Below, piece after piece: positions 744 through 43,909 of a DNA stretch of 64,000 bases. The notes under the pieces are model-generated. The model was not told the DNA's origin. It made no database searches and saw only the letters and a program-made list of their open reading frames with translations. Made by a program: the position numbers and the translations under genes. Origin of the DNA: Hyphomicrobiaceae bacterium (GTDB lineage: Bacteria > Pseudomonadota > Alphaproteobacteria > Rhizobiales > Hyphomicrobiaceae); NCBI GenBank assembly GCA_022844275.1, contig JALHMB010000004.1, forward strand, positions 496,001 through 560,000. The letters are read 5' to 3'. Position 1 is the stretch's first letter. Every line of letters begins with the position of its first letter.

Positions 744-784
744 GGGCGATGAGGAGCGGCAAACGCCGATGTCGCGCAAGCTCC

Positions 785-830
785 CGCCCCTCATCCCGAC
801 CTTCTCCCCGTGAAGGACGGGGAGAAGGGG
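785..830 (+). repeat. REP-like palindrome R1
   Basis: A leader ending in CCCTCATCCC is followed by a hairpin with arms CTTCTCCCCGT and ACGGGGAGAAG around a 5-nt loop. The same layout recurs at 1411-1459 and, inverted, near 891, 28024 and, direct again, 28097. It lies right after the cckA stop codon. Confidence 0.8.
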
Positions 831-890
831 AAGTGGGCGCCGAACTCGGGGCGAGGGGCGGCAAGAAGCAAGGTCGGCGCACCTTACTTT

Positions 891-3648: not shown

Positions 3649-6114
<2,466 letters not shown>

Positions 6115-12862: not shown

Positions 12863-13030
12863 GCTAGCGTGATGATCGAGAAATTCGCCAGATCTCGCGG
12901 CATGGTGCCCAGCGAATTTCTCGATCTGAATCACACTAGCAAGTTCATGATTCTAGTGTCCCTTTTGATTCCGAAGTTCGCTCGGGACGCCGGCATCGAG
13001 GCATGGCGAACTTCGGAATCGGGACACTAG
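12863..13030 (+). repeat. Bipartite hairpin element A (78 + 12 + 78 bp)
   Basis: Two consecutive imperfect palindromes. Hairpin 1 (12863-12940): outer arm GCTAGCGTGA against TCACACTAGC, a 3-nt bulge on the right arm, inner arm GATCGAGAAATTCGC against its exact complement, 23-nt loop. Hairpin 2 (12953-13030): outer arm CTAGTGTCCC against GGGACACTAG, a 4-nt TTTT bulge on the left arm, inner arm GATTCCGAAGTTCGC against its exact complement, 24-nt loop. The spacer is 12 bp. The element ends 5 bp before the ATG of the DUF2126 gene. The same element, reversed, is at 41781-41948 with compensating stem changes. The shape recalls the Rhizobium-specific intergenic mosaic elements (RIME), which also have two large palindromes. 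Confidence 0.9.
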
Positions 13031-13035
13031 CACCC

Positions 13036-16000
13036 ATGGCACTTCATGTTGCGCTGAAGCACGAGACGATCTACCGCTACGATCGGCGCATCGGCATGGG
13101 ACCTCAGGTCATCCGGCTGCGGCCCGCGCCACATGCGAGGACGCCGATCCTCAGCTATTCGATGAGAATCGAGCCGGCGCTGCATTTCCTGAACTGGCAG
13201 CAGGACCCATTCGGCAACTATCTCGCGCGGGTCGTGATCCCGGAGGAGACGGAAGTCTTCTCGGTCACCGTCGACCTGATTGCCGATATGGCAGTGATCA
13301 ATCCGTTCGATTTCTTCGTCGAGGAGAGCGCCACCGAGTGGCCCTTCGAATATGACGCCGCACTGACGAAAGAGCTCCAGCCGTATCTGGATATGGAGCC
13401 CGCCGGCCAGCGGCTTACCAAATACTTGGCGGGGATCGACAAGCGTAAGCAGACCACGATCGACTTTCTCATCGATCTGAACCGCAATCTTCAGCACGAG
13501 ATTCGGTATCTCATCCGCATGGAGCCCGGCGTGCAGACGCCGGAAGAGACGCTCGGCAACGCTTCCGGGTCGTGCCGCGACAGCGCGTGGCTGCTCGTCC
13601 AGATCCTGCGCAATCTTGGCCTCGCCGCTCGGTTCGTGTCCGGCTATCTCATTCAGCTGACGCCCGACGTGAAGTCGCTCGATGGTCCGACGGGCACGGA
13701 CATCGATTTCACGGATTTGCACGCGTGGTGCGAGGTCTATCTGCCGGGGGCCGGCTGGATCGGACTCGATGCGACCTCGGGTCTGCTGACTGGCGAGGGG
13801 CATATCCCGCTTGCCGCAACACCAAGTCCGACGAGCGCGGCCCCGATCACCGGCAGCCACGGCCGCGCCGAGGTCGAGTTCGAGCACCGCATGGGGGTGA
13901 CGCGCGTGCTCGAGACGCCGCGCGTGACGAAGCCCTACAGCGATGAGCAGTGGCAGGCCATTCTCGATGCTGGCCATGCCGTGGACGAGCGCCTCAAGAG
14001 CGGCGATGTACGCCTCAGCATGGGTGGCGAGCCGACATTCGTCGCGGCGGATGACATGGAGGGCGCGGAGTGGAATACCGGTGCGGTCGGCCCGAACAAG
14101 CGGCGCTATGCGGATGATCTCGTGCGCCGCCTGCGGGACCGCTTCGCGAAGGGCGGCCTGCTCCATTATGGCCAGGGCAAATGGTATCCCGGCGAGCAGC
14201 TCCCGCGTTGGGCATTCGCGCTCTATTGGCGCGCGGACGGCGAGGCGCTTTGGGAGGATCAGGGCCTCATTGCGCGCGAGACCACCGGGCGGCCACCGTC
14301 GCCCAACGATCTTCAGTTCTTCATGCGCGGGCTCTGCACGCAGCTCGGCCTGCCGACGGAGAGCGGCATGGCGGCCTACGAGGACCCCGTCCACTTCATG
14401 GCCGTCGAGCAGAAGCTGCCGCTCAATGTGACGGTCGAGGACAACAAGCTCGAGGATCCCGCCGAACGCCAGCGCGTTATGCGCACGTTCGAGCGCGGGC
14501 TCGGCGCGCCGGTCGGCTATGTGCTGCCTGTGCAGGTCTGGCATACGCAGGATCGTGGCCGGAGATGGGTGACGGAGCGCTGGGCACTCCGGCGCGGCAA
14601 GCTGTTCCTCGTGCCGGGCGACTCGCCCGTCGGCTTCCGCCTGCCGCTCGGCTCCGCGCCTCTGGTGTCGCCGATCGACTATCCACACGTACTGCCGCGC
14701 GATCCCTTCGCGCCGGCACCAGCATTGCCGGAGCGCCGCGTTCTCATGCAGCGCCGCCGCACGGTCGCGTTGGAAGGGCCACAGGCGCTGCCTGACTTGC
14801 CCCACGACGTCGTCGCCGGCTCGGTACGCACGGCACTTGCTGTCGAGGCGCGCGATGGCCGCGTCTGCGTGTTCATGCCGCCGCTCGAGGATGCCGAGGA
14901 CTATGCAGCCATGATCGCGGCGATCGAGGAGACGGCGCGCGCGACCGACCTCGCCATCCACATCGAAGGGTACGAGCCGCCACGTGACCCGCGCCTCAAT
15001 GTCATCAAGGTGACGCCCGATCCGGGCGTGATCGAGGTCAATGTTCAGCCGGCCATGTCCTGGGACGAGGCGGTGAATATCACGACCGGCCTTTATGAGG
15101 ACGCGCACTTCTGCCGCCTGAGCGCAGAGAAGTTCATGCTGGATGGCCGCCACTCCGGCACGGGCGGCGGCAACCACATCGTGCTCGGTGGTGCGACACC
15201 GGCCAACAGCCCCTTCCTGCGCCGGCCCGATCTGCTCGCATCGGTCATTACCTACTGGCAGAACCATCCTTCGCTCTCGTACCTCTTCTCGGGCCTCTTC
15301 ATTGGTCCGACCAGCCAGGCGCCGCGCGCGGACGAGGGTCGCCACGAAGCGCTCTACGAGTTGGAGATCGCGCTCTCCGAGGTGCCGGATCTGGGCGCCG
15401 GCAGCATACCGCCGTGGCTCGTCGACCGGCTCTTCCGCAATCTGCTGATCGACGTCACCGGCAACACCCATCGTGCCGAGATCTGCATCGACAAGCTCTA
15501 CTCGCCGGATGGCCCGACGGGTCGGCTGGGGCTCCTCGAATTCCGTTCCTTCGAGATGCCGCCACACGCGCGCATGAGCCTTGCCCAGCAGCTTCTGCTG
15601 CGGGCGCTCGTCGTGATGTTCTGGGAGAAGCCCTACCGGCAGAAGCTCGTGCGCTGGGGCACGGCGCTGCACGACCGATTCATGCTGCCTCACTTCCTGT
15701 GGTCGGACTTCTCCGATGTGGTCGGTGATCTCAAGGCGGCCGGCCTGCCCATCGAGCTCGATTGGTTCCTGCCGCACGCCGAATTCCGCTGTCCGGTGCT
15801 CGGCAAGATCGCGACGCATGACATCGAGCTGGAGGTGCGTCAGGCCCTCGAGCCATGGCATGTGCTCGGCGAGGAAGGCGCTCCCGGTGGCACGGCCCGC
15901 TACGTCGATTCCTCGCTCGAGCGGGTGCAGGTTGCGGTGCGCGGTCTGACTGGCGACCGCTTCGTCATCACGTGCAATGGCCGCACGCTACCGCTGAGCC

Positions 16001-16332
16001 CGACCGGGACCTTCGGCGAGGCCGTCGCCGGCGTACGCTACCGCGCCTGGCACCCGCCATCCGCACTCCATCCGACCATTCCGGCGCACGTCCCCCTGAC
16101 GTTCGACGTCTTCGACAGCTGGACGGGGCGGTCGATCGCGGGCTGCCGCTATCACGTCTCGCATCCCGGTGGACGCAGCTTCGATGTTTTCCCGGTGAAT
16201 GCCTATGAGGCGGAGGGGCGGCGCCTCGCACGCTTCGAAGCGCACGGTCATACGCCCGGCCAGATGACCCCGCAGCCGGCGCGAATCAACCCGGATTACC
16301 CGGTGACTCTCGACCTGCGCCGGAATGCTTGA
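13036..16332 (+). CDS. Large transglutaminase-like protein with DUF2126 domain
   Basis: A 1098-residue protein. Residues about 1-280 are a bacterial transglutaminase-like N domain plus core with an intact triad: Cys180 in SGSCRDSAW, His229 in LHAWCEVY, Asp245 in GLDATSG. The remaining about 800 residues are DUF2126 (LSMGGEPTFVAADD, GRHSGTGGGNHIVLGG, LEFRSFEMPPHARM), which I recall as carrying a glutamine-synthetase-like amidoligase fold. It starts an operon with the ATP-grasp/alpha-E and second transglutaminase genes. Such clusters are proposed to form and cut amide bonds on an unknown peptide. The ATG at 13036 has no normal ribosome binding site because element A ends 5 bp upstream. Confidence 0.85.
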   Translation: MALHVALKHETIYRYDRRIGMGPQVIRLRPAPHARTPILSYSMRIEPALHFLNWQQDPFGNYLARVVIPEETEVFSVTVDLIADMAVINPFDFFVEESATEWPFEYDAALTKELQPYLDMEPAGQRLTKYLAGIDKRKQTTIDFLIDLNRNLQHEIRYLIRMEPGVQTPEETLGNASGSCRDSAWLLVQILRNLGLAARFVSGYLIQLTPDVKSLDGPTGTDIDFTDLHAWCEVYLPGAGWIGLDATSGLLTGEGHIPLAATPSPTSAAPITGSHGRAEVEFEHRMGVTRVLETPRVTKPYSDEQWQAILDAGHAVDERLKSGDVRLSMGGEPTFVAADDMEGAEWNTGAVGPNKRRYADDLVRRLRDRFAKGGLLHYGQGKWYPGEQLPRWAFALYWRADGEALWEDQGLIARETTGRPPSPNDLQFFMRGLCTQLGLPTESGMAAYEDPVHFMAVEQKLPLNVTVEDNKLEDPAERQRVMRTFERGLGAPVGYVLPVQVWHTQDRGRRWVTERWALRRGKLFLVPGDSPVGFRLPLGSAPLVSPIDYPHVLPRDPFAPAPALPERRVLMQRRRTVALEGPQALPDLPHDVVAGSVRTALAVEARDGRVCVFMPPLEDAEDYAAMIAAIEETARATDLAIHIEGYEPPRDPRLNVIKVTPDPGVIEVNVQPAMSWDEAVNITTGLYEDAHFCRLSAEKFMLDGRHSGTGGGNHIVLGGATPANSPFLRRPDLLASVITYWQNHPSLSYLFSGLFIGPTSQAPRADEGRHEALYELEIALSEVPDLGAGSIPPWLVDRLFRNLLIDVTGNTHRAEICIDKLYSPDGPTGRLGLLEFRSFEMPPHARMSLAQQLLLRALVVMFWEKPYRQKLVRWGTALHDRFMLPHFLWSDFSDVVGDLKAAGLPIELDWFLPHAEFRCPVLGKIATHDIELEVRQALEPWHVLGEEGAPGGTARYVDSSLERVQVAVRGLTGDRFVITCNGRTLPLSPTGTFGEAVAGVRYRAWHPPSALHPTIPAHVPLTFDVFDSWTGRSIAGCRYHVSHPGGRSFDVFPVNAYEAEGRRLARFEAHGHTPGQMTPQPARINPDYPVTLDLRRNA

Positions 16333-23196: not shown

Positions 23197-24135
23197 ATGC
23201 GCATCGAGTATCATCGCTCGCTCATCGCGGACACTGGGCGTCTCGCGGCATTCGAGCGCGCGCTTGCAAAGGTCATCCGCAAGGGCGAGACGGTCGTCGC
23301 CGATATCGGCACCGGCAGCGGCGTTCTCGCCATGATTGCAGCCAAGCTCGGGGCGCGCAAAGTCATCGCCTACGAATTCGCGGAGATCGGCGCGCTGGCC
23401 GAGCGCCTCGTCAAGCTCAACAAGCTGCGCAACATCGAGCTCGTTCCCATGCGCTCGACCGAGATCATCGAGCCGGAGCGCGCCGATGTCGTGGTCACCG
23501 AGACGCTCGGCAACTACGCGCTGGAAGAGTTCCTCGTCGAGACCATGAACGATGCGGCTGCGCGCCATTTGAAGCCGGGCGGGGTGCTCATCCCGGGCGG
23601 GCTAGAGCAGATGGTCGCGCCGGTCATCGCGTCGCGCTGCCGCGATGAGCTCGTCGCCTGGGAGCGACTCGGCCGCGGTCTCGACTTCGGGCCGGCCAGC
23701 GTCATGAGCCTCAACAATGCCTATGTGCGCGCTTTTCCTCAGGCAGAGCTTTTGGATGGTGGTCGTACGGCCGTGACCTGGGACAAGCTCGATTTCCACG
23801 TTCGCAATCGCTTCGCGCGCAAGGGTGCGGGGGAATGGCAGATCCGCGAGCCCGTCACGGTCCACGGGCTCGCCGTGTGGTGGTCGGCCGAGCTGGTGCC
23901 AGGCGTGGTGCTCTCCACATCGCCGCTCGCGCAGCCGACGCACTGGGAGCAGCTTTTCCTACCGGCGCTGGAGCCGATCGCACTCAGGACGGGCGAAACT
24001 CTGGTGGCGCAATTGCGCTCGCACTCCTCCGAGGAGGGGGGAACGGATCTCGCCTGGGGCTTCCGCGCGAAGACGGCAAAAGGCAAGCAGCGCCTTGCTC
24101 AGGACCTGAGCCTCGAGAAGGGCTTCCTGCCCTAA
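23197..24135 (+). CDS. PRMT-like protein (putative protein arginine methyltransferase fold)
   Basis: A 312-residue class I methyltransferase. The SAM-binding motifs are VVADIGTGSGVLAM (residues 33-46) and the acidic end of strand 2, AYE60. The double-E loop of arginine methyltransferases is seen as TETLGNYALEEF, with Glu102 and Glu111. At residues 240-251 the sequence LSTSPLAQPTHWEQ carries the THW loop that is nearly diagnostic for PRMTs. The N terminus (HRSLIADTGRLAAFERAL) matches the PRMT entry helix. Ribosomal L11 methyltransferase lacks the THW loop. Target and neighbours are unknown. Hairpin element C begins at the base after the stop codon. Confidence 0.75.
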   Translation: MRIEYHRSLIADTGRLAAFERALAKVIRKGETVVADIGTGSGVLAMIAAKLGARKVIAYEFAEIGALAERLVKLNKLRNIELVPMRSTEIIEPERADVVVTETLGNYALEEFLVETMNDAAARHLKPGGVLIPGGLEQMVAPVIASRCRDELVAWERLGRGLDFGPASVMSLNNAYVRAFPQAELLDGGRTAVTWDKLDFHVRNRFARKGAGEWQIREPVTVHGLAVWWSAELVPGVVLSTSPLAQPTHWEQLFLPALEPIALRTGETLVAQLRSHSSEEGGTDLAWGFRAKTAKGKQRLAQDLSLEKGFLP

Positions 24136-24290
24136 AGCGTCGGACCTTAAGTGCGACCCACGATTGGGTCGAGCTCACAGTCGCATTTGAGGTCCAAAGA
24201 CGCTTCAGATGCACAGCGTTCTAAAGCAACTTTGGACTTGAAATTCACGCTCCGCCTGGCCTCGATCTGAGGTGAATTTCTTGTCCGTTG
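24136..24290 (+). repeat. Bipartite hairpin element C
   Basis: Two consecutive imperfect palindromes. Hairpin 1 (24136-24204): outer arm AGCGTC against GACGCT, a 3-nt bulge, inner arm GGACCTTAAGTGCGAC against a near-complement, 22-nt loop. Hairpin 2 (24227-24290): outer CAAC against GTTG, a TTT bulge on the left arm, inner GGAC...GAAATTCAC against GTGAATTTC...GTCC, 23-nt loop. Sequence differs from elements A and B, but the shape (short outer stem, asymmetric 3-4-nt bulge, long inner stem, 22-24-nt loop, twice) is the same. It starts at the first base after the stop codon at 24135. Confidence 0.75.
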
Positions 24291-24445
24291 CCATAGGCCT
24301 CCCAGAAACGTGAGCAAGTGTGAGCGGATTTACCCGGCGGGCGGCAGTAAGTTCATGCTGCTTGACCATCAATATCTTGCCCGCCGTTCACTCCAGTCCT
24401 ACGTTTTTCCCTAATTGATCAGATTAGCGAAGCCGAGGCATTGCC
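24291..24445. other. Leader region of msrB
   Basis: 155 bp between element C and msrB. It presumably holds the msrB promoter; no -35/-10 pair stood out with confidence. No coding frame. Confidence 0.5.
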
Positions 24446-28004: not shown

Positions 28005-28023
28005 GAGTGTGTTCCTTTGCTTC

Positions 28024-28070
28024 TCCTTCTCCCCGTACTTCACGGGGAGAAGGTCGGGATGAGGGGCGGC
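28024..28070 (-). repeat. REP-like palindrome R4
   Basis: CTTCTCCCCGT and ACGGGGAGAAG pair around an ACTTC-type loop, followed by the inverted leader GTCGGGATGAGGGGCGG. It lies just 5' of the helicase gene and converges with R5. Confidence 0.8.
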
Positions 28071-28096
28071 CACACGCGCAGACGTTAGTGTATGTC

Positions 28097-28143
28097 GCCG
28101 CCCCTCACCCTGGCCCTCTCCCCGTGAGAACGGGGAGAGGGGA
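28097..28143 (+). repeat. REP-like palindrome R5
   Basis: Leader CGCCCCTCACCCTGG, then CCTCTCCCCGT and ACGGGGAGAGG around a GAGA-type loop. It is direct, next to the inverted R4, and lies 5 bp from the end of pdeM, between pdeM and the helicase gene. Confidence 0.8.
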
Positions 28144-28148
28144 AAATC

Positions 28149-39821: not shown

Positions 39822-41777
39822 TCAGCGCATGACGCGGCCGAGCGTCGCCGCTGCGACGCGGGCCGGCACGATGCGCGGGACATCGGCCGAGAAGCGCCCG
39901 GAATAGATGAAGCGGATGAGCTTCGCTTTGGTTTCGGCCGTTTCCTCGAAGCGCACGACGAAGTCCTCGGCGCCAACGCGTAGGACTGTGCCTCTTATGC
40001 TCATGCCGTCGAGAACGAGCGTCACGCTCTTGCCCTGAAGGGCCGGCGCGGCGCCGGCAATACGTGCACCACCGAGCGAGACATCGATGACGCGCACCTC
40101 TGAGCTCTCGCCATCCACATCGATCAGTGCGAGGTTGCGCGCGCTCAGCCGCTCGGAGGCGCGCAGGCGCGGCTGCTCGATGCAGACGATGCAGGCGATG
40201 GTTAGCACGACGATATTGTACCAGCTCCAGAAGAGGCAGAGCGCAGCGGAGTCGCGCAGCCTGCTGCCGTCCTCGAAAATGAAAGCCCACATGAGCCCGC
40301 CGATGGTCAACGCGAGATAGATCAGGAAGACGCGCATGAGCGGCCATTGGACGAACAGCTTGCTGCGGTCGCCGCCTTTGGCCGTGACCTGGAACTTGTG
40401 GCCCTTGGGCTTGATGATGCCGTGAACAACGGCACGCGCGATCTGCGACGCGGCGAGCAGCTGCGTCACGTCGGACAAGATCGGCATGACGCGACCGCGC
40501 GCCATCCAGCCCATGATCGTGATCTGCGAGATGAAATAGGGGAGGTAGTAGCCGAGCGTATCCATGACGTCGGCTTGCACGGCGTGCACGTCCAGCCACA
40601 AATAGAGGATTGGAATGATGATGCCGAACAAGCGGAAGGAGTGGGCCGCCGACCAGTAGAGGAAGGTTTCGCTCAGGCTGATGCGATCGATGAGTGTGAG
40701 GCCGTTGTTGCGCCGAAACGGACCAAGCTCGCCGCGGCAGATCTGCACGAATCCGAGCGCCCAGCGGCTGCGCTGGGTCACATACTCCTTGAGGCCTTCG
40801 GGGGCGAGACCGAGCGAGAGGCGCTCATTGAGATAGACCGTGCGATAGCCGACGACCTTCATCTTGAGCGTGACGAGATAGTCCTCGGTCACGGACTCGG
40901 TCGGAAAGCCGCCGATCTGCTGGAGGATCGGGAAGCGGATCACCGAGGACGTGCCGCAACAGAAGGAGGCACCCCAGGCGTCCTTCGCGGCCATGACCAC
41001 ATCGAAGAAATAGCGCTGCTCGTCCGGCCACACGCGCGCAATGGAGAGATTGCTCTGCAGCGGGTCGGGATTGATGAAGTGCTGCGGGGTCTGGACGATG
41101 CCGACATTCTCTTCGCGAAAGAGGCTTAGTGCACGGCGCAGGAAGTGCGGTGCGGGCACGAAGTCCGCATCGAGAATGCTGATGAAGTCCGGCGGTTCGA
41201 CAAGCGTCGCGACGTGGCGGAGCCCGTTGTTGATATTGCCCGCCTTGGCATGGGCATTGTCGGAACGTGTCAGATAGTTCGCGCCGAGGCGGCCAGCCAA
41301 GGCCTCGAGCCACGGGCGGCGGCCGTCGTCGAGCACCCAGACGCGGTAGCGCGGATAATCGAGTGCGAGCGCGCCGACGATCGTGCGCTCGAGAATCGCC
41401 TCTTCCTCGTTATACGTGCAGATGAAGACATCGACGAGCGGCGGGCGCGCCTGCCCCATGAGCCACGGCTCGTTGCGATCGGCATCGCCTGAGCGATTGG
41501 TGAGCTTGATCAGGAAGGTGAGGCTGATCGTGGCGCCAATGACGACCAGGGTCTCGATGATGACGAAGACGAGGCCGACGACGAAATCGACGCTGAGGCC
41601 GATGGGGGGCAGCGTCACGATCCAGCGCCAGGCCATATAGCGCCACATGAGCACGAGCATGACCGCGACCATGGCCGCGCGAGCACGCTCGTCCTCGGCC
41701 TTCAGCCATGGCAGCACGGTCCAGGCAAAGCCCAGGACGATGAAACCCGGAACAAGGGCCTCGATAAGAAGCGGCAT
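39822..41777 (-). CDS. Family 2 glycosyltransferase with C-terminal PilZ-like domain (BgsA/CrdS-like glucan synthase)
   Basis: A 651-residue membrane synthase. Helices at about 6-25, 34-55 and 63-92 precede the GT2 domain, with Asp150-Asp151 (VLDDG), DAD at 203-205, TED at 297-299 and the processive motif QRSRW at 335-339. More helices follow at about 370-540. Residues about 545-640 look PilZ-like (RASER, DVSLGGARI), suggesting c-di-GMP control. With the HlyD-like gene upstream, the order matches Sinorhizobium bgsBA for mixed-linkage beta-glucan; curdlan synthase CrdS and BcsA are alternatives. Hairpin element B ends 3 bp before the ATG. Confidence 0.82.
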   Translation of the reverse strand: MPLLIEALVPGFIVLGFAWTVLPWLKAEDERARAAMVAVMLVLMWRYMAWRWIVTLPPIGLSVDFVVGLVFVIIETLVVIGATISLTFLIKLTNRSGDADRNEPWLMGQARPPLVDVFICTYNEEEAILERTIVGALALDYPRYRVWVLDDGRRPWLEALAGRLGANYLTRSDNAHAKAGNINNGLRHVATLVEPPDFISILDADFVPAPHFLRRALSLFREENVGIVQTPQHFINPDPLQSNLSIARVWPDEQRYFFDVVMAAKDAWGASFCCGTSSVIRFPILQQIGGFPTESVTEDYLVTLKMKVVGYRTVYLNERLSLGLAPEGLKEYVTQRSRWALGFVQICRGELGPFRRNNGLTLIDRISLSETFLYWSAAHSFRLFGIIIPILYLWLDVHAVQADVMDTLGYYLPYFISQITIMGWMARGRVMPILSDVTQLLAASQIARAVVHGIIKPKGHKFQVTAKGGDRSKLFVQWPLMRVFLIYLALTIGGLMWAFIFEDGSRLRDSAALCLFWSWYNIVVLTIACIVCIEQPRLRASERLSARNLALIDVDGESSEVRVIDVSLGGARIAGAAPALQGKSVTLVLDGMSIRGTVLRVGAEDFVVRFEETAETKAKLIRFIYSGRFSADVPRIVPARVAAATLGRVMR

Positions 41778-41780
41778 CGC

Positions 41781-41948
41781 CTAGTGCCCCAATTCCGAAG
41801 TTCGCCTGACCTCGCTGCTGGTGGCGGGAGCGAACTTCGGAAACTGAAGGGGCACTAGCAGCAAAACACTGCTCGTGCGATTCAGATCGAGCAATTCGCT
41901 CGGTACGGCATCGCAAGCACTGGCGAATTGCTCGATCATCGCACGAGC
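41781..41948 (-). repeat. Bipartite hairpin element B (78 + 12 + 78 bp), reversed copy of A
   Basis: Hairpin a (41781-41858): outer arm CTAGTGCCCC against GGGGCACTAG, a 4-nt bulge, inner arm ending CCGAAGTTCGC against GCGAACTTCGG, 24-nt loop. Hairpin b (41871-41948): outer arm GCTCGTGCGA against TCGCACGAGC, a 4-nt bulge, inner arm GATCGAGCAATTCGC against its exact complement. The spacer is 12 bp, so total length equals element A exactly. Relative to A, paired positions change together (T-A to C-G in the CTAGTG arm; A-T to C-G in GATCGAG). The element fills the gap between the HlyD-like gene (stop 1 bp away) and the synthase gene (start 3 bp away). Confidence 0.9.
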
Positions 41949-41949
41949 C

Positions 41950-43371
41950 TCAACCGCCGAACGTGACGCGACCCGTGCGGCCGACGCTGCACCGGCCGTT
42001 GGTGGGCATGGCGGGCAGGGTGACCATGACGCGATAGGGTTCCTTGGCGAGAGCCGCCGGCTGGATGGCGAGATTGGCCGGCGCCGTCGCGACGCCCGTG
42101 AGGCTGACGATGCGGCCCTCGTAGTCGGTGCTTTCGCCGCGGAAGCGGAAGCGCGCCGGATGGCCGACTCGGAGCTGATTGTAGGCGGCTTCGCCAACGG
42201 TCGCAGTCACGACGAGTCCAGAGCAGTCGAGCAGACGGACGAGATCCTGGCCGCGCACGACCGACTCGCCGGGGGCGGTCATGACCTCCCAGATGGTGCC
42301 GATAACCGGCGCTACGAGGCCGGCAGCCGAACGCTGGGCATAGCGCATGTTTTCGGCTGAAAGCTCGGTGCGCAGGCTCGCGAGGCGTGCTTCACGCTGG
42401 GTGATGTCGGCATTGATCTCGTTGAGGCGAAGCGCGATCTCGTCGGCGCGCTGCAGGGATTGCGGGCGGTCGTTGTAGCTGTCGCCAATATAGATGCCGC
42501 GGCGCAGGGCGGAGAGCTCGACGTCGAGGGTATTGCGGCGGTGGCCGAGAGCTTCGAGCGTCTGGCTGGCGACGGTCGCATCACGACGCGCGCGCTCGAG
42601 TGCGACGACAGTGCCGGTGCCCGCGTCGGCAAGCGCCTGCGATCGTTCTAGCGTCTGCTGCGCCTCTTCGTGGCGGGCCGTTGCGGCAGCGATCTCGCTG
42701 CGCGTCTCGGCCATGCGCGATTCGAGCTGGGCGATGCGACCCGTCCGGAAAGCCTCGCCGTTGGCGGTGTGCTCGTCATGGAGCTTCAGGAGGCTCTCGC
42801 GGCGGGCTGTTTGCGCCTTGATGTCGCTTTCGAGTTCGCTAACGAGCTGGGCGACCGCATCGAGCCGGCCGCGGTCGGCACGCGGATTGACAATGCCGAG
42901 GACTTCGGCGCCCGGCTTCAGTTCGGTGCCGACGGCGACCTGTCCGAGCCAGGATACCTGGCCTTCGATCGGGGCGCGCAGCGTGATGAGGCGCGCGTTG
43001 ATGATCGCTTCGGTGCTGGTCGTCTGCATGAGTGCCTGTAGCGGCATCCACCCTGCGACGACGACGAGAATCACGCCGGCGAGCGTCTTCAGGATGCGCC
43101 GGTCGACGGCACGGAGCTGCGGCGGCCCCTTCGCGGTGGGAGCTGCAGCCGGCGCTGACTTGGGTTGGGGACCGGCTTCGGGTGCGGGCTCCGAGACCGG
43201 CGCGAAGGCTTTGTCGAGAGCGGCGAGGCGGCCGAGTGCGTCCAGTTCGGCGAGTGGCAGGCTGTCCGACTGCGTTCCGGCAGCGCTCTCGCTCGACACA
43301 CGCGGCAGCGAACCTGTCGCTTCGATATCCTCGCGTTTCTTCTGCAGCGGCAAACTCGATACGCGGCTCAT
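41950..43371 (-). CDS. HlyD-like membrane fusion protein (BgsB-like)
   Basis: A 473-residue protein with a cytosolic Pro/Ala-rich N terminus of about 90 residues, one membrane helix (LKTLAGVILVVVAGWMPLQAL), then a periplasmic HlyD-type arm. A beta lipoyl-like half is at ARLITLRAPIEGQVSWLG, long coiled coil follows (about 180-330), and a return half at GLVAPVIGTIWEVMTAPGESVVRGQDLVRLLD. It probably helps export the polysaccharide made by the synthase downstream. The start at 43371 has TTGGAG upstream; an ATG at 43416 would add 15 residues. Confidence 0.8.
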   Translation of the reverse strand: MSRVSSLPLQKKREDIEATGSLPRVSSESAAGTQSDSLPLAELDALGRLAALDKAFAPVSEPAPEAGPQPKSAPAAAPTAKGPPQLRAVDRRILKTLAGVILVVVAGWMPLQALMQTTSTEAIINARLITLRAPIEGQVSWLGQVAVGTELKPGAEVLGIVNPRADRGRLDAVAQLVSELESDIKAQTARRESLLKLHDEHTANGEAFRTGRIAQLESRMAETRSEIAAATARHEEAQQTLERSQALADAGTGTVVALERARRDATVASQTLEALGHRRNTLDVELSALRRGIYIGDSYNDRPQSLQRADEIALRLNEINADITQREARLASLRTELSAENMRYAQRSAAGLVAPVIGTIWEVMTAPGESVVRGQDLVRLLDCSGLVVTATVGEAAYNQLRVGHPARFRFRGESTDYEGRIVSLTGVATAPANLAIQPAALAKEPYRVMVTLPAMPTNGRCSVGRTGRVTFGG

Positions 43372-43909
43372 GGCGGCTCCAAGGCCCTGGGAAAGCGGAG
43401 ATGCTTGGGCGGGCATACCAGGGGACGCGGCCTGCTCAGCTGTCTGATCAGTTTGAAAGTGTAGGCATCGAGATTTGCTTTAGCGTTAATTCATCGAGCA
43501 ATTTCTCGAGAATTGCGGATGATGAATCTATGCGGATGCAATTTATGATTGCATTATTTGAGTGCGCTACTTTTGAGTGTATTGCGGATCGCAGAAGAAG
43601 CACAAAAGTGCTTTTAGAACCAGCTCAGTAAGTGTTGGTGGAGCGCAGCGCTCAAAATGTTGCCGAAAAGCCGCCGTTGCTGAACTTCCTCCAGTATCAA
43701 AATAATCACGAAGGTGCTTTGTGCCGGAATCAACCTAACCTCGCAAAAGGTGATGCAGAGAAGAGTCCCGCCATAAACTAGATGTCAGCAAGCCTCTGTC
43801 CCAGCACTGATCGTGCGACGTCGGACAAGATGAAATCTGTCATGGGCTGTGGCAGCGCGGATTTGCTGATCTGGTGGACGCGGGTGCTTTTCGGGGCTGA
43901 GGGAATTTG
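43372..43909. other. AT-richer intergenic region with small hairpins
   Basis: About 540 bp between divergent genes, visibly poorer in G+C than its surroundings from about 43460 to 43640. It contains short perfect hairpins: ATGCAAT/ATTGCAT near 43538 and AAGCAC/GTGCTT followed by TTT near 43600. No coding frame is convincing. It should contain promoters for the HlyD-like gene and the GntR regulator gene. Confidence 0.6.

What the first reader, a model, noticed from the sequence alone, without database searches (positions are those of the whole stretch)
12863..13030. 168-bp two-hairpin element, conserved in size and shape with covarying stems (copy A; copy B at 41781-41948)
Both copies consist of two 78-bp imperfect hairpins with a spacer of exactly 12 bp. 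Each hairpin has an outer stem of about 10 bp, a one-sided 3-4-nt bulge, an inner stem of 11-15 bp and a 23-24-nt loop. Between copies, stem changes come in pairs: CTAGTGTCCC/GGGACACTAG becomes CTAGTGCCCC/GGGGCACTAG, GATCGAGAA becomes GATCGAGCA with its complement also changed, and GCTAGTGTGA becomes GCTCGTGCGA at two positions with both partners changed. Loops are not conserved. That is the signature of a structure being preserved. The family may be related to the RIME elements of Rhizobium, which also have two large palindromes, but the paired-bulge geometry and stem covariation deserve a description of their own.
Basis: partly seen in the sequence, partly recalled or inferred. Interest (0 to 1): 0.85.

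Follow-up and report, generated by a model that had tools for sequence, protein, structure and literature searches.

The report
Two-hairpin transposon relic, IS630 family
The 167-base double hairpin is a tiny jumping DNA element without genes, present in dozens of copies, whose two ends match those of a known transposon family and one of which often sits directly in front of the start of a gene.

Summary
Copies A and B belong to a repeat family with at least 44 full or nearly full copies in this genome, which lies in the GTDB genus of Hyphomicrobium sp. CS1BSMeth3. A covariance model also matches 17 of 150 genomes of the order. In 49 aligned copies, 16 of 50 stem pairs change on both sides.

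Best explained as a non-autonomous IS630/Tc1-mariner-type element (MITE): CTAG...CTAG, with empty sites of CTAG size in relatives. Its left and right tips match the upstream and downstream tips of 5 of 11 IS630 elements examined. Each tip is doubled into a hairpin with a 3-4-nt bulge on the inner arm only.

Covariation does not point to RNA: G.U and A.C mismatches are equally common on the transcribed strand. Nothing found here supports RIME kinship.

New: the right end carries a Shine-Dalgarno-like GGGA. In 153 copies of the genus, by my own ORF calls, the start codon lies 0-9 bp away in 33 of 103 right-end and 0 of 69 left-end cases. Young copies in another genus do not show this. Terminal CTAG often supplies the upstream stop codon. 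Where copy B was deleted, two of four relatives keep the GGGA end. Translation was not tested.

The parts
12864..13030 (+). Copy A, whole element CTAG...CTAG (167 bp)
   Evidence: absent at the orthologous place in G002, G003, G004
12863..12940 (+). Copy A hairpin 1 (left, IS630 upstream-tip type CTAGTGTGATGATCGAGAAATTCGC)
12941..12952 (+). Copy A 12-bp spacer
12953..13030 (+). Copy A hairpin 2 (right, IS630 downstream-tip type; 4-nt bulge TTTT on inner arm)
13021..13024 (+). GGGA, Shine-Dalgarno-like, with 11 bases between it and the ATG at 13036 (the ORF, 13003-16332, is also open from an ATG inside the element)
   Evidence: duplex of the right end with the anti-SD -4.0 kcal/mol
41781..41947 (-). 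Copy B, whole element, between the stop of ORF 41950-43416(-) and the start of ORF 39822-41777(-)
   Evidence: remnants of the right end in G004 and G001
24132..24296 (-). Third, highly divergent copy with the same two bulged hairpins; its terminal CTAA contains the stop codon of ORF 23197-24135(+)

Best explanation
The element is a non-autonomous miniature transposon (MITE) derived from an IS630-family (Tc1/mariner-type) insertion sequence. Shown: its left and right tips correspond to the upstream and downstream tips of several IS630 elements; it lies in CTAG; some relatives without it have a CTAG-sized site, so one TA is duplicated; many copies are not shared between species. Inferred: an IS630 transposase acting in trans cuts at the outer TA-GTGT ends and inserts into TA of CTAG. 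Each end has been doubled into an inverted repeat; the 3-4-nt bulge changes spacing in the inner copies only, so the outer ends are probably the active ones. CTAG is rare and often spans stop codons, and the element remakes CTAG at both ends, so such insertions leave the upstream stop intact. The right end also brings GGGA at ribosome-binding distance, so insertions just before a start codon survive only in that orientation, and some may now serve as the gene's initiation signal. Stem symmetry is kept at DNA level, by constraint on the arms plus arm-to-arm copying, not visibly by RNA folding.
For: IS630 tips: left cTAGTGTCCTGATCGAGAAGTT and right cTAGTGTCCCGATTCTGAAGTT (Komagataeibacter plasmid); the same left/right contrast in the Bradyrhizobium, Roseomonas, G006 and G045 elements, 5 of 11 looked at; MITE left cTAGTGTGATGATCGAGAAATT, right cTAGTGTCCCGATTCCGAAGTT. 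Three of the transposases hit NF033545 IS630 at 275-288 bits. The right end reads ACT TCG GAA TCG GGA CAC TAG = TSESGH-stop, the C-terminus of the G006 transposase (my reading of the letters). Empty sites: CTAG in G000 where G001 has a copy, CTGG in G000 where G003 has one, 4 bp at copy A in three relatives (alignment). Of 153 copies 93 have CTAG at both ends. Tandem copies in G011 share one CTAG. Recent burst in G006: 40 of 40 scored copies (111 candidates) at least 97% identical, and G006 carries IS630. Start codon 0-9 bp: 33 of 103 right-end, 0 of 69 left-end, Fisher 4e-9. TAG of terminal CTAG is the stop codon in 43 of 122 stops. IS630 preference for CTAG: title of a cited paper in PMC2170065.
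Against: The own genome has no IS630 transposase above cut-off; of the 5 genomes of the genus only G004 has one, with different tips. Of 11 IS630 elements, the Rhodovastum one has left-type sequence at both tips and five have other tips. No IS with doubled, bulged ends was found, so their origin is unexplained. Of 16 comparisons with a place lacking the full element (two double fetches left out), only 5 have exactly 4 bp; the rest run from -9 to 53 bp. Inner arms are as conserved as outer ones, which transposition by the outer ends alone does not require. GGGA lies in the hairpin-2 stem, which would hide it in folded mRNA, and is a weak signal. Young G006 copies show no start adjacency (0 of 12 right-end, 0 of 14 left-end).
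Confidence: 0.87

Rival explanations
1. A structured RNA element (riboregulator or stabilising 5'/3' UTR hairpins) that was spread and is kept for its RNA fold.
For: Covariation. In 11 orthologous insertions stems differ at 84 of 1098 sites, loops and spacer at 142 of 654; 14 pairs changed on both sides to another Watson-Crick pair, and one-sided changes involve G.U 20 times and A.C 11 times on the element's + strand. The outer stem of hairpin 2 looks more conserved in start-adjacent copies (14 of 660 against 97 of 2275 in the two other main classes, no test run).
Against: G.U no commoner than A.C on the transcribed strand of tandem copies, 71 to 65. Both orientations occur. The copies of the ortholog set were mostly picked by model score, which favours intact stems. 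In G006, picked by whole-element similarity, single-copy mutations are 10 in 98 stem sites and 11 in 61 loop/spacer sites, p = 0.23. No Rfam match at gathering score.
Confidence: 0.12
2. Stem symmetry is purely mutational: quasi-palindrome correction by template switching copies one arm onto the other.
For: G003 copy L189 has no hairpin-1 bulge and is a perfect palindrome there while its G001 orthologue has the bulge. Two of 164 copies lack bulge 1, one lacks bulge 2. Inverted hairpin 2 in L306 and L238.
Against: Bulges are 3 nt in 161 and 4 nt in 152 of 164 copies and are present in the copies printed from other genera, which free correction would erase. By my reasoning neutral correction should not lower the substitution rate in stems.
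Confidence: 0.3
3. A RIME, REP/REPIN or ABC-type palindromic element of rhizobia mobilised by another enzyme.
Against: Ends, target and likely parent are of IS630 type. A separate CCCCTCATCC...GGGGAGAAGG repeat in the window looks more like what I recall of RIME. RIME sequences and RAYT genes were not searched for.
Confidence: 0.03
4. A transcription terminator shared by neighbouring genes.
For: Strong hairpins, intergenic, often next to stop codons.
Against: Only 7 of 142 classified copies of the genus lie between convergent genes, 103 between tandem and 32 between divergent genes; in G006 it is 10 of 31. Not tested with the terminator scan.
Confidence: 0.05

Closest known systems
RUP (repeat unit of pneumococcus), proposed to be mobilised in trans by IS630-Spn1
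   Same: Short gene-less element, about 110 copies, tips like an IS630 element, TA-containing target (passages of PMC2229807 and PMC3049150)
   Different: 107 bp and described as simple; here 167 bp with two bulged hairpins, separate left and right tip types, CTAG target, orientation-specific link to start codons
IS630 family (Tc1/mariner type), e.g. IS630 and ISY100
   Same: CTAG/TA target, tip sequences with left and right variants (passages of PMC2170065)
   Different: No transposase gene here; each tip doubled as an inverted repeat
Yersinia palindromic sequence YPAL/RU-2
   Same: About 168 bp, intergenic, palindromic (passage of PMC2229807)
   Different: Its termini lack TA and its inverted repeats are internal
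MITEPsy1 of Pseudomonas syringae
   Same: 100-nt MITE, target CTAG or YTAA (passages of PMC3189936)
   Different: 4-nt duplication, listed as 'IS5?', 18-nt inverted repeats of one kind
RIME of Rhizobium
   Different: Sequence not compared; no IS630 link known to me

Membership tests
IS630-derived MITE | Short, no transposase gene, many dispersed copies | tested here: met
   161-171 bp in 168 elements, 4 of them fetched twice; 40 scored of 97 candidates in own genome
IS630-derived MITE | Terminal sequences match those of an autonomous IS630 element | tested here: met
   left and right types matched in 5 of 11 IS630 elements; none from the own genome, where no transposase passes the cut-off
IS630-derived MITE | Insertion into TA with duplication of TA | tested here: met
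   empty sites CTAG, CTGG and 4 bp, 5 of 16 comparisons; CTAG at both ends in 93 of 153
IS630-derived MITE | Moved in trans by an IS630 transposase | not testable with these tools
   needs a transposition assay
Structured RNA family | Covarying stems | tested here: met
   16 of 50 pairs
Structured RNA family | Excess of G.U over A.C on the transcribed strand | tested here: not met
   71 against 65 in 103 tandem copies; 20 against 11 on the element strand in 11 ortholog pairs, orientation to genes not considered
Structured RNA family | Match to a curated RNA family | tested here: not met
   at gathering score only a TPP riboswitch elsewhere in the window
RIME | Sequence similarity to RIME1/RIME2 | not testable with these tools
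   no consensus seen in the listing and passages looked at
REPIN/RAYT | Cognate REP-associated tyrosine transposase in the genome | not tested
   searches spent on IS630

The most novel reading that the evidence does not exclude
The element is a mobile translation-start module: its right end installs a ribosome-binding site inside a bulged hairpin directly before host genes, so tens of genes per genome share a structured, possibly regulated leader; its doubled, bulged ends would also be a new end architecture for a Tc1/mariner-type element, spread across an order.
Probability: 0.22. Interest if true: 0.82.

Novelty: new variant of a known kind. Interest (0 to 1): 0.58.

Why it matters
It gives a natural experiment: the same short DNA dropped many times beside start and stop codons, in both orientations, with the outcome depending on which end faces the start. 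That makes it testable how ready-made initiation signals are spread by transposons and kept by hosts. It also shows that strong stem covariation can arise in a mobile DNA palindrome without a clear sign of RNA selection, a warning for covariation-based RNA discovery.

Tried and rejected
Element in plasmids and phages by blastn (distant): no match in either. BLAST in relatives found it only in family f1 (16 of 40 genomes; 0 of the 16 genomes from other families). The first G006 sample of 21 copies (0 singletons in 98 stem sites, 7 in 61 others) was set aside because the copies had been picked by similarity to copy A, which favours intact stems; the 33 copies replaced it. In one search, four of 15 listed pairs were the same insertions fetched twice and were dropped; 11 pairs were used. 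In some searches I dropped 15 of 168 elements (4 double fetches, 11 second members of orthologous pairs). Gene starts and stops come from my own codon-usage ORF caller, not from annotation; for copy A an in-frame ATG inside the element is also possible. A promoter in the spacer or right end was looked for by eye only and not seen. Papers: searches; in their listings I saw no description of this element or of orientation-specific start-codon adjacency of a MITE; most subscription literature is not held. Only passages of PMC3049150, PMC2229807, PMC2170065, PMC3189936 and PMC2873474 were seen.

Full report
What is there. Copy A (12863-13030) and copy B (41781-41948, minus) are as described. By its insertion limits the unit is 167 bp, from CTAG to CTAG. 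In the own genome a BLAST search with copy A scored 40 of 97 candidates; all 40 are full or nearly full length, 83-100% identical. Copy B and two further copies appear with B as query, one more with the model, so at least 44. The covariance model R1, from 49 copies (A1), gives 145 matches in the own genome among 150 scored candidates, but both strands of a palindrome can match, so that number is not a copy count. All 5 genomes of the genus have the element. In the order 17 of 150 genomes, in 11 families, have model matches at E <= 0.001, with full-length matches of up to 133 bits outside the family; only 19 candidates per genome were scored and these sequences were not inspected.

Structure. 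With the two-hairpin structure laid on A1, 97.3% of 2445 cells pair and 16 of 50 pairs show a change on both sides; no shuffle in 500 reaches the observed value on any measure, and slid partners give 23-42% paired. Divergence from consensus in 121 copies is 2-6% in stems and about 20% in loops and spacer, and nearly equal in the two arms. The bulges lie only on the inner arms, usually 3 nt in hairpin 1 and 4 nt in hairpin 2.

Origin. In G009 the last 24 bases of the element turned up as the tip of a repeated stretch at contig ends, with an open frame whose full-length relatives in G006, G045 and G070 are IS630-family transposases. In five of eleven IS630 elements (Komagataeibacter, Bradyrhizobium, Roseomonas, G006, G045) the two tips differ from each other in the way the two outer tips of the element differ: upstream tip of the type TAGTGTCCTGATCGanAAAtt, downstream tip of the type TAGTGTCCTGATTCtGAAGTt. 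The Rhodovastum element has the upstream type at both tips; Rhizobium, Sphingobium and the G047, G070 and G004 elements have other tip sequences, but all eleven have CTAG borders. The downstream tip of the G006 element encodes the last residues of the transposase, TSESGH-stop, and the right end of the MITE still reads so in the same frame. The own genome has four weak IS630 hits, none above cut-off, so the source of transposase for these copies is not known.

Movement. At copy A, G002, G003 and G004 have seven bases between conserved flanks where the filled site, less the element and one TA, predicts seven (4 bp when counted to the element's borders). G000 has exactly CTAG where G001 has a copy, and CTGG where G003 has another. 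Other comparisons are less clean: of 16 places without the full element, 5 have 4 bp and the rest -9 to 53 bp, the copy-B site among them. Of 41 own copies only 2 had an orthologous copy among 80 fetched from G003. Two copies in G011 sit head to tail sharing one CTAG. In G007 a second kind of two-hairpin element is nested in a CTAG of the first. Single hairpin-2 units bordered by CTAG exist (L299, L309). In G006, 40 of 40 scored copies are at least 97% identical.

Where the copies lie. Among 153 non-redundant copies of the genus, 103 lie between tandem genes, 32 between divergent and 7 between convergent ones, 11 unclassified, none inside a called ORF; in G011 one of 10 lies inside one. The TAG in the terminal CTAG is the stop codon of the neighbouring gene in 29 of 78 stops faced by the left end and 14 of 44 faced by the right end. 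CTAG is rare in the window, 32 sites against 93 expected. Start codons are quite different: 33 of 103 faced by the right end lie 0-9 bp away (in fact 0-7), 0 of 69 faced by the left end (Fisher 4e-9); four left-end starts were called inside the element; from 30 bp on the two ends are alike, 49 and 54. The junction reads CGGGACACTAG-N0-7-ATG in most. GGGA can pair with the anti-Shine-Dalgarno sequence (right end -4.0 kcal/mol, left end +0.3, canonical -15.4), so it is a weak signal, 6-13 bases before the start. Both window copies are of this class: A 5 bp and B 3 bp before an ATG. In the copy-A empty sites a GGAAAGG lies before the ATG and the insertion has displaced it. At copy B, G004 and G001 have lost most of the element but keep GGGACACCAG just before the ATG; G003 does not, and G002 is unclear. 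Against this: young G006 copies show no start adjacency for either end (0 of 12 and 0 of 14), but do show stop codons overlapping CTAG by 4 bases (19 of 38) and more convergent places (10 of 31, against 7 of 142; p = 7e-5). I read this as insertion preference in G006 and survival after selection in the older copies of genus g1, but the groups are different genera and G006 is a small sample. In G011, 3 of 6 right-end and 0 of 3 left-end starts are within 0-9 bp.

Does the RNA fold matter? In 11 orthologous insertions stems changed at 84 of 1098 sites and loops plus spacer at 142 of 654, with 14 pairs changed from one Watson-Crick pair to another. That looks like structure kept in place, but the copies were mostly listed by model score, which favours intact stems. 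The G006 set, chosen by whole-element similarity, gives 10 singletons in 98 stem sites and 11 in 61 others (p = 0.23). On the transcribed strand of the tandem copies G.U is not favoured over A.C (71 and 65); in the ortholog pairs one-sided changes lean to G.U, 20 to 11, on the element's strand. Template switching is seen: bulge lost in L189 against L053 and inverted hairpins. So the symmetry is real, its cause is at DNA level as far as I can see, and RNA-level selection is neither needed nor excluded.

Third copy. The model finds 24132-24296 (minus) at 72 bits: the same two hairpins with 3-nt inner bulges but other arm sequences, its terminal CTAA holding the stop codon of ORF 23197-24135. The architecture therefore seems to outlive the tip sequence.

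Noticed in passing
window 784-833, 1411-1460, 28020-28147: CCCCTCATCC...CTTCTCCCCGT...GGGGAGAAGG palindromic repeats, a second family, resembling what I recall of RIME-type repeats of rhizobia.
   Followed up: no
window 3649-3760: TPP riboswitch, 69.1 bits.
   Followed up: no
L307 414-582 (G007:C136): A two-hairpin element with quite different arms (CTAGTGTAGC / CTAGTGTTCC) nested in a CTAG of the known one; same spacer type.
   Followed up: partly
L306 310-472 (G003:C4) and L238: Copies whose hairpin 2 is inverted in place.
   Followed up: partly
L053/L189 (G001/G003): Orthologous copies only 3 substitutions apart in the counted sites, though flanks are 83-89% identical; cause unknown.
   Followed up: no
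L366, L367, L368, L369 (IMG/VR contigs): Element or single hairpins in four contigs classed as viral; L368 seems to hold three hairpins in a row.
   Followed up: partly
L100 1498-2673 and on (G006:C84): Two IS630 copies in tandem sharing one CTAG.
   Followed up: no
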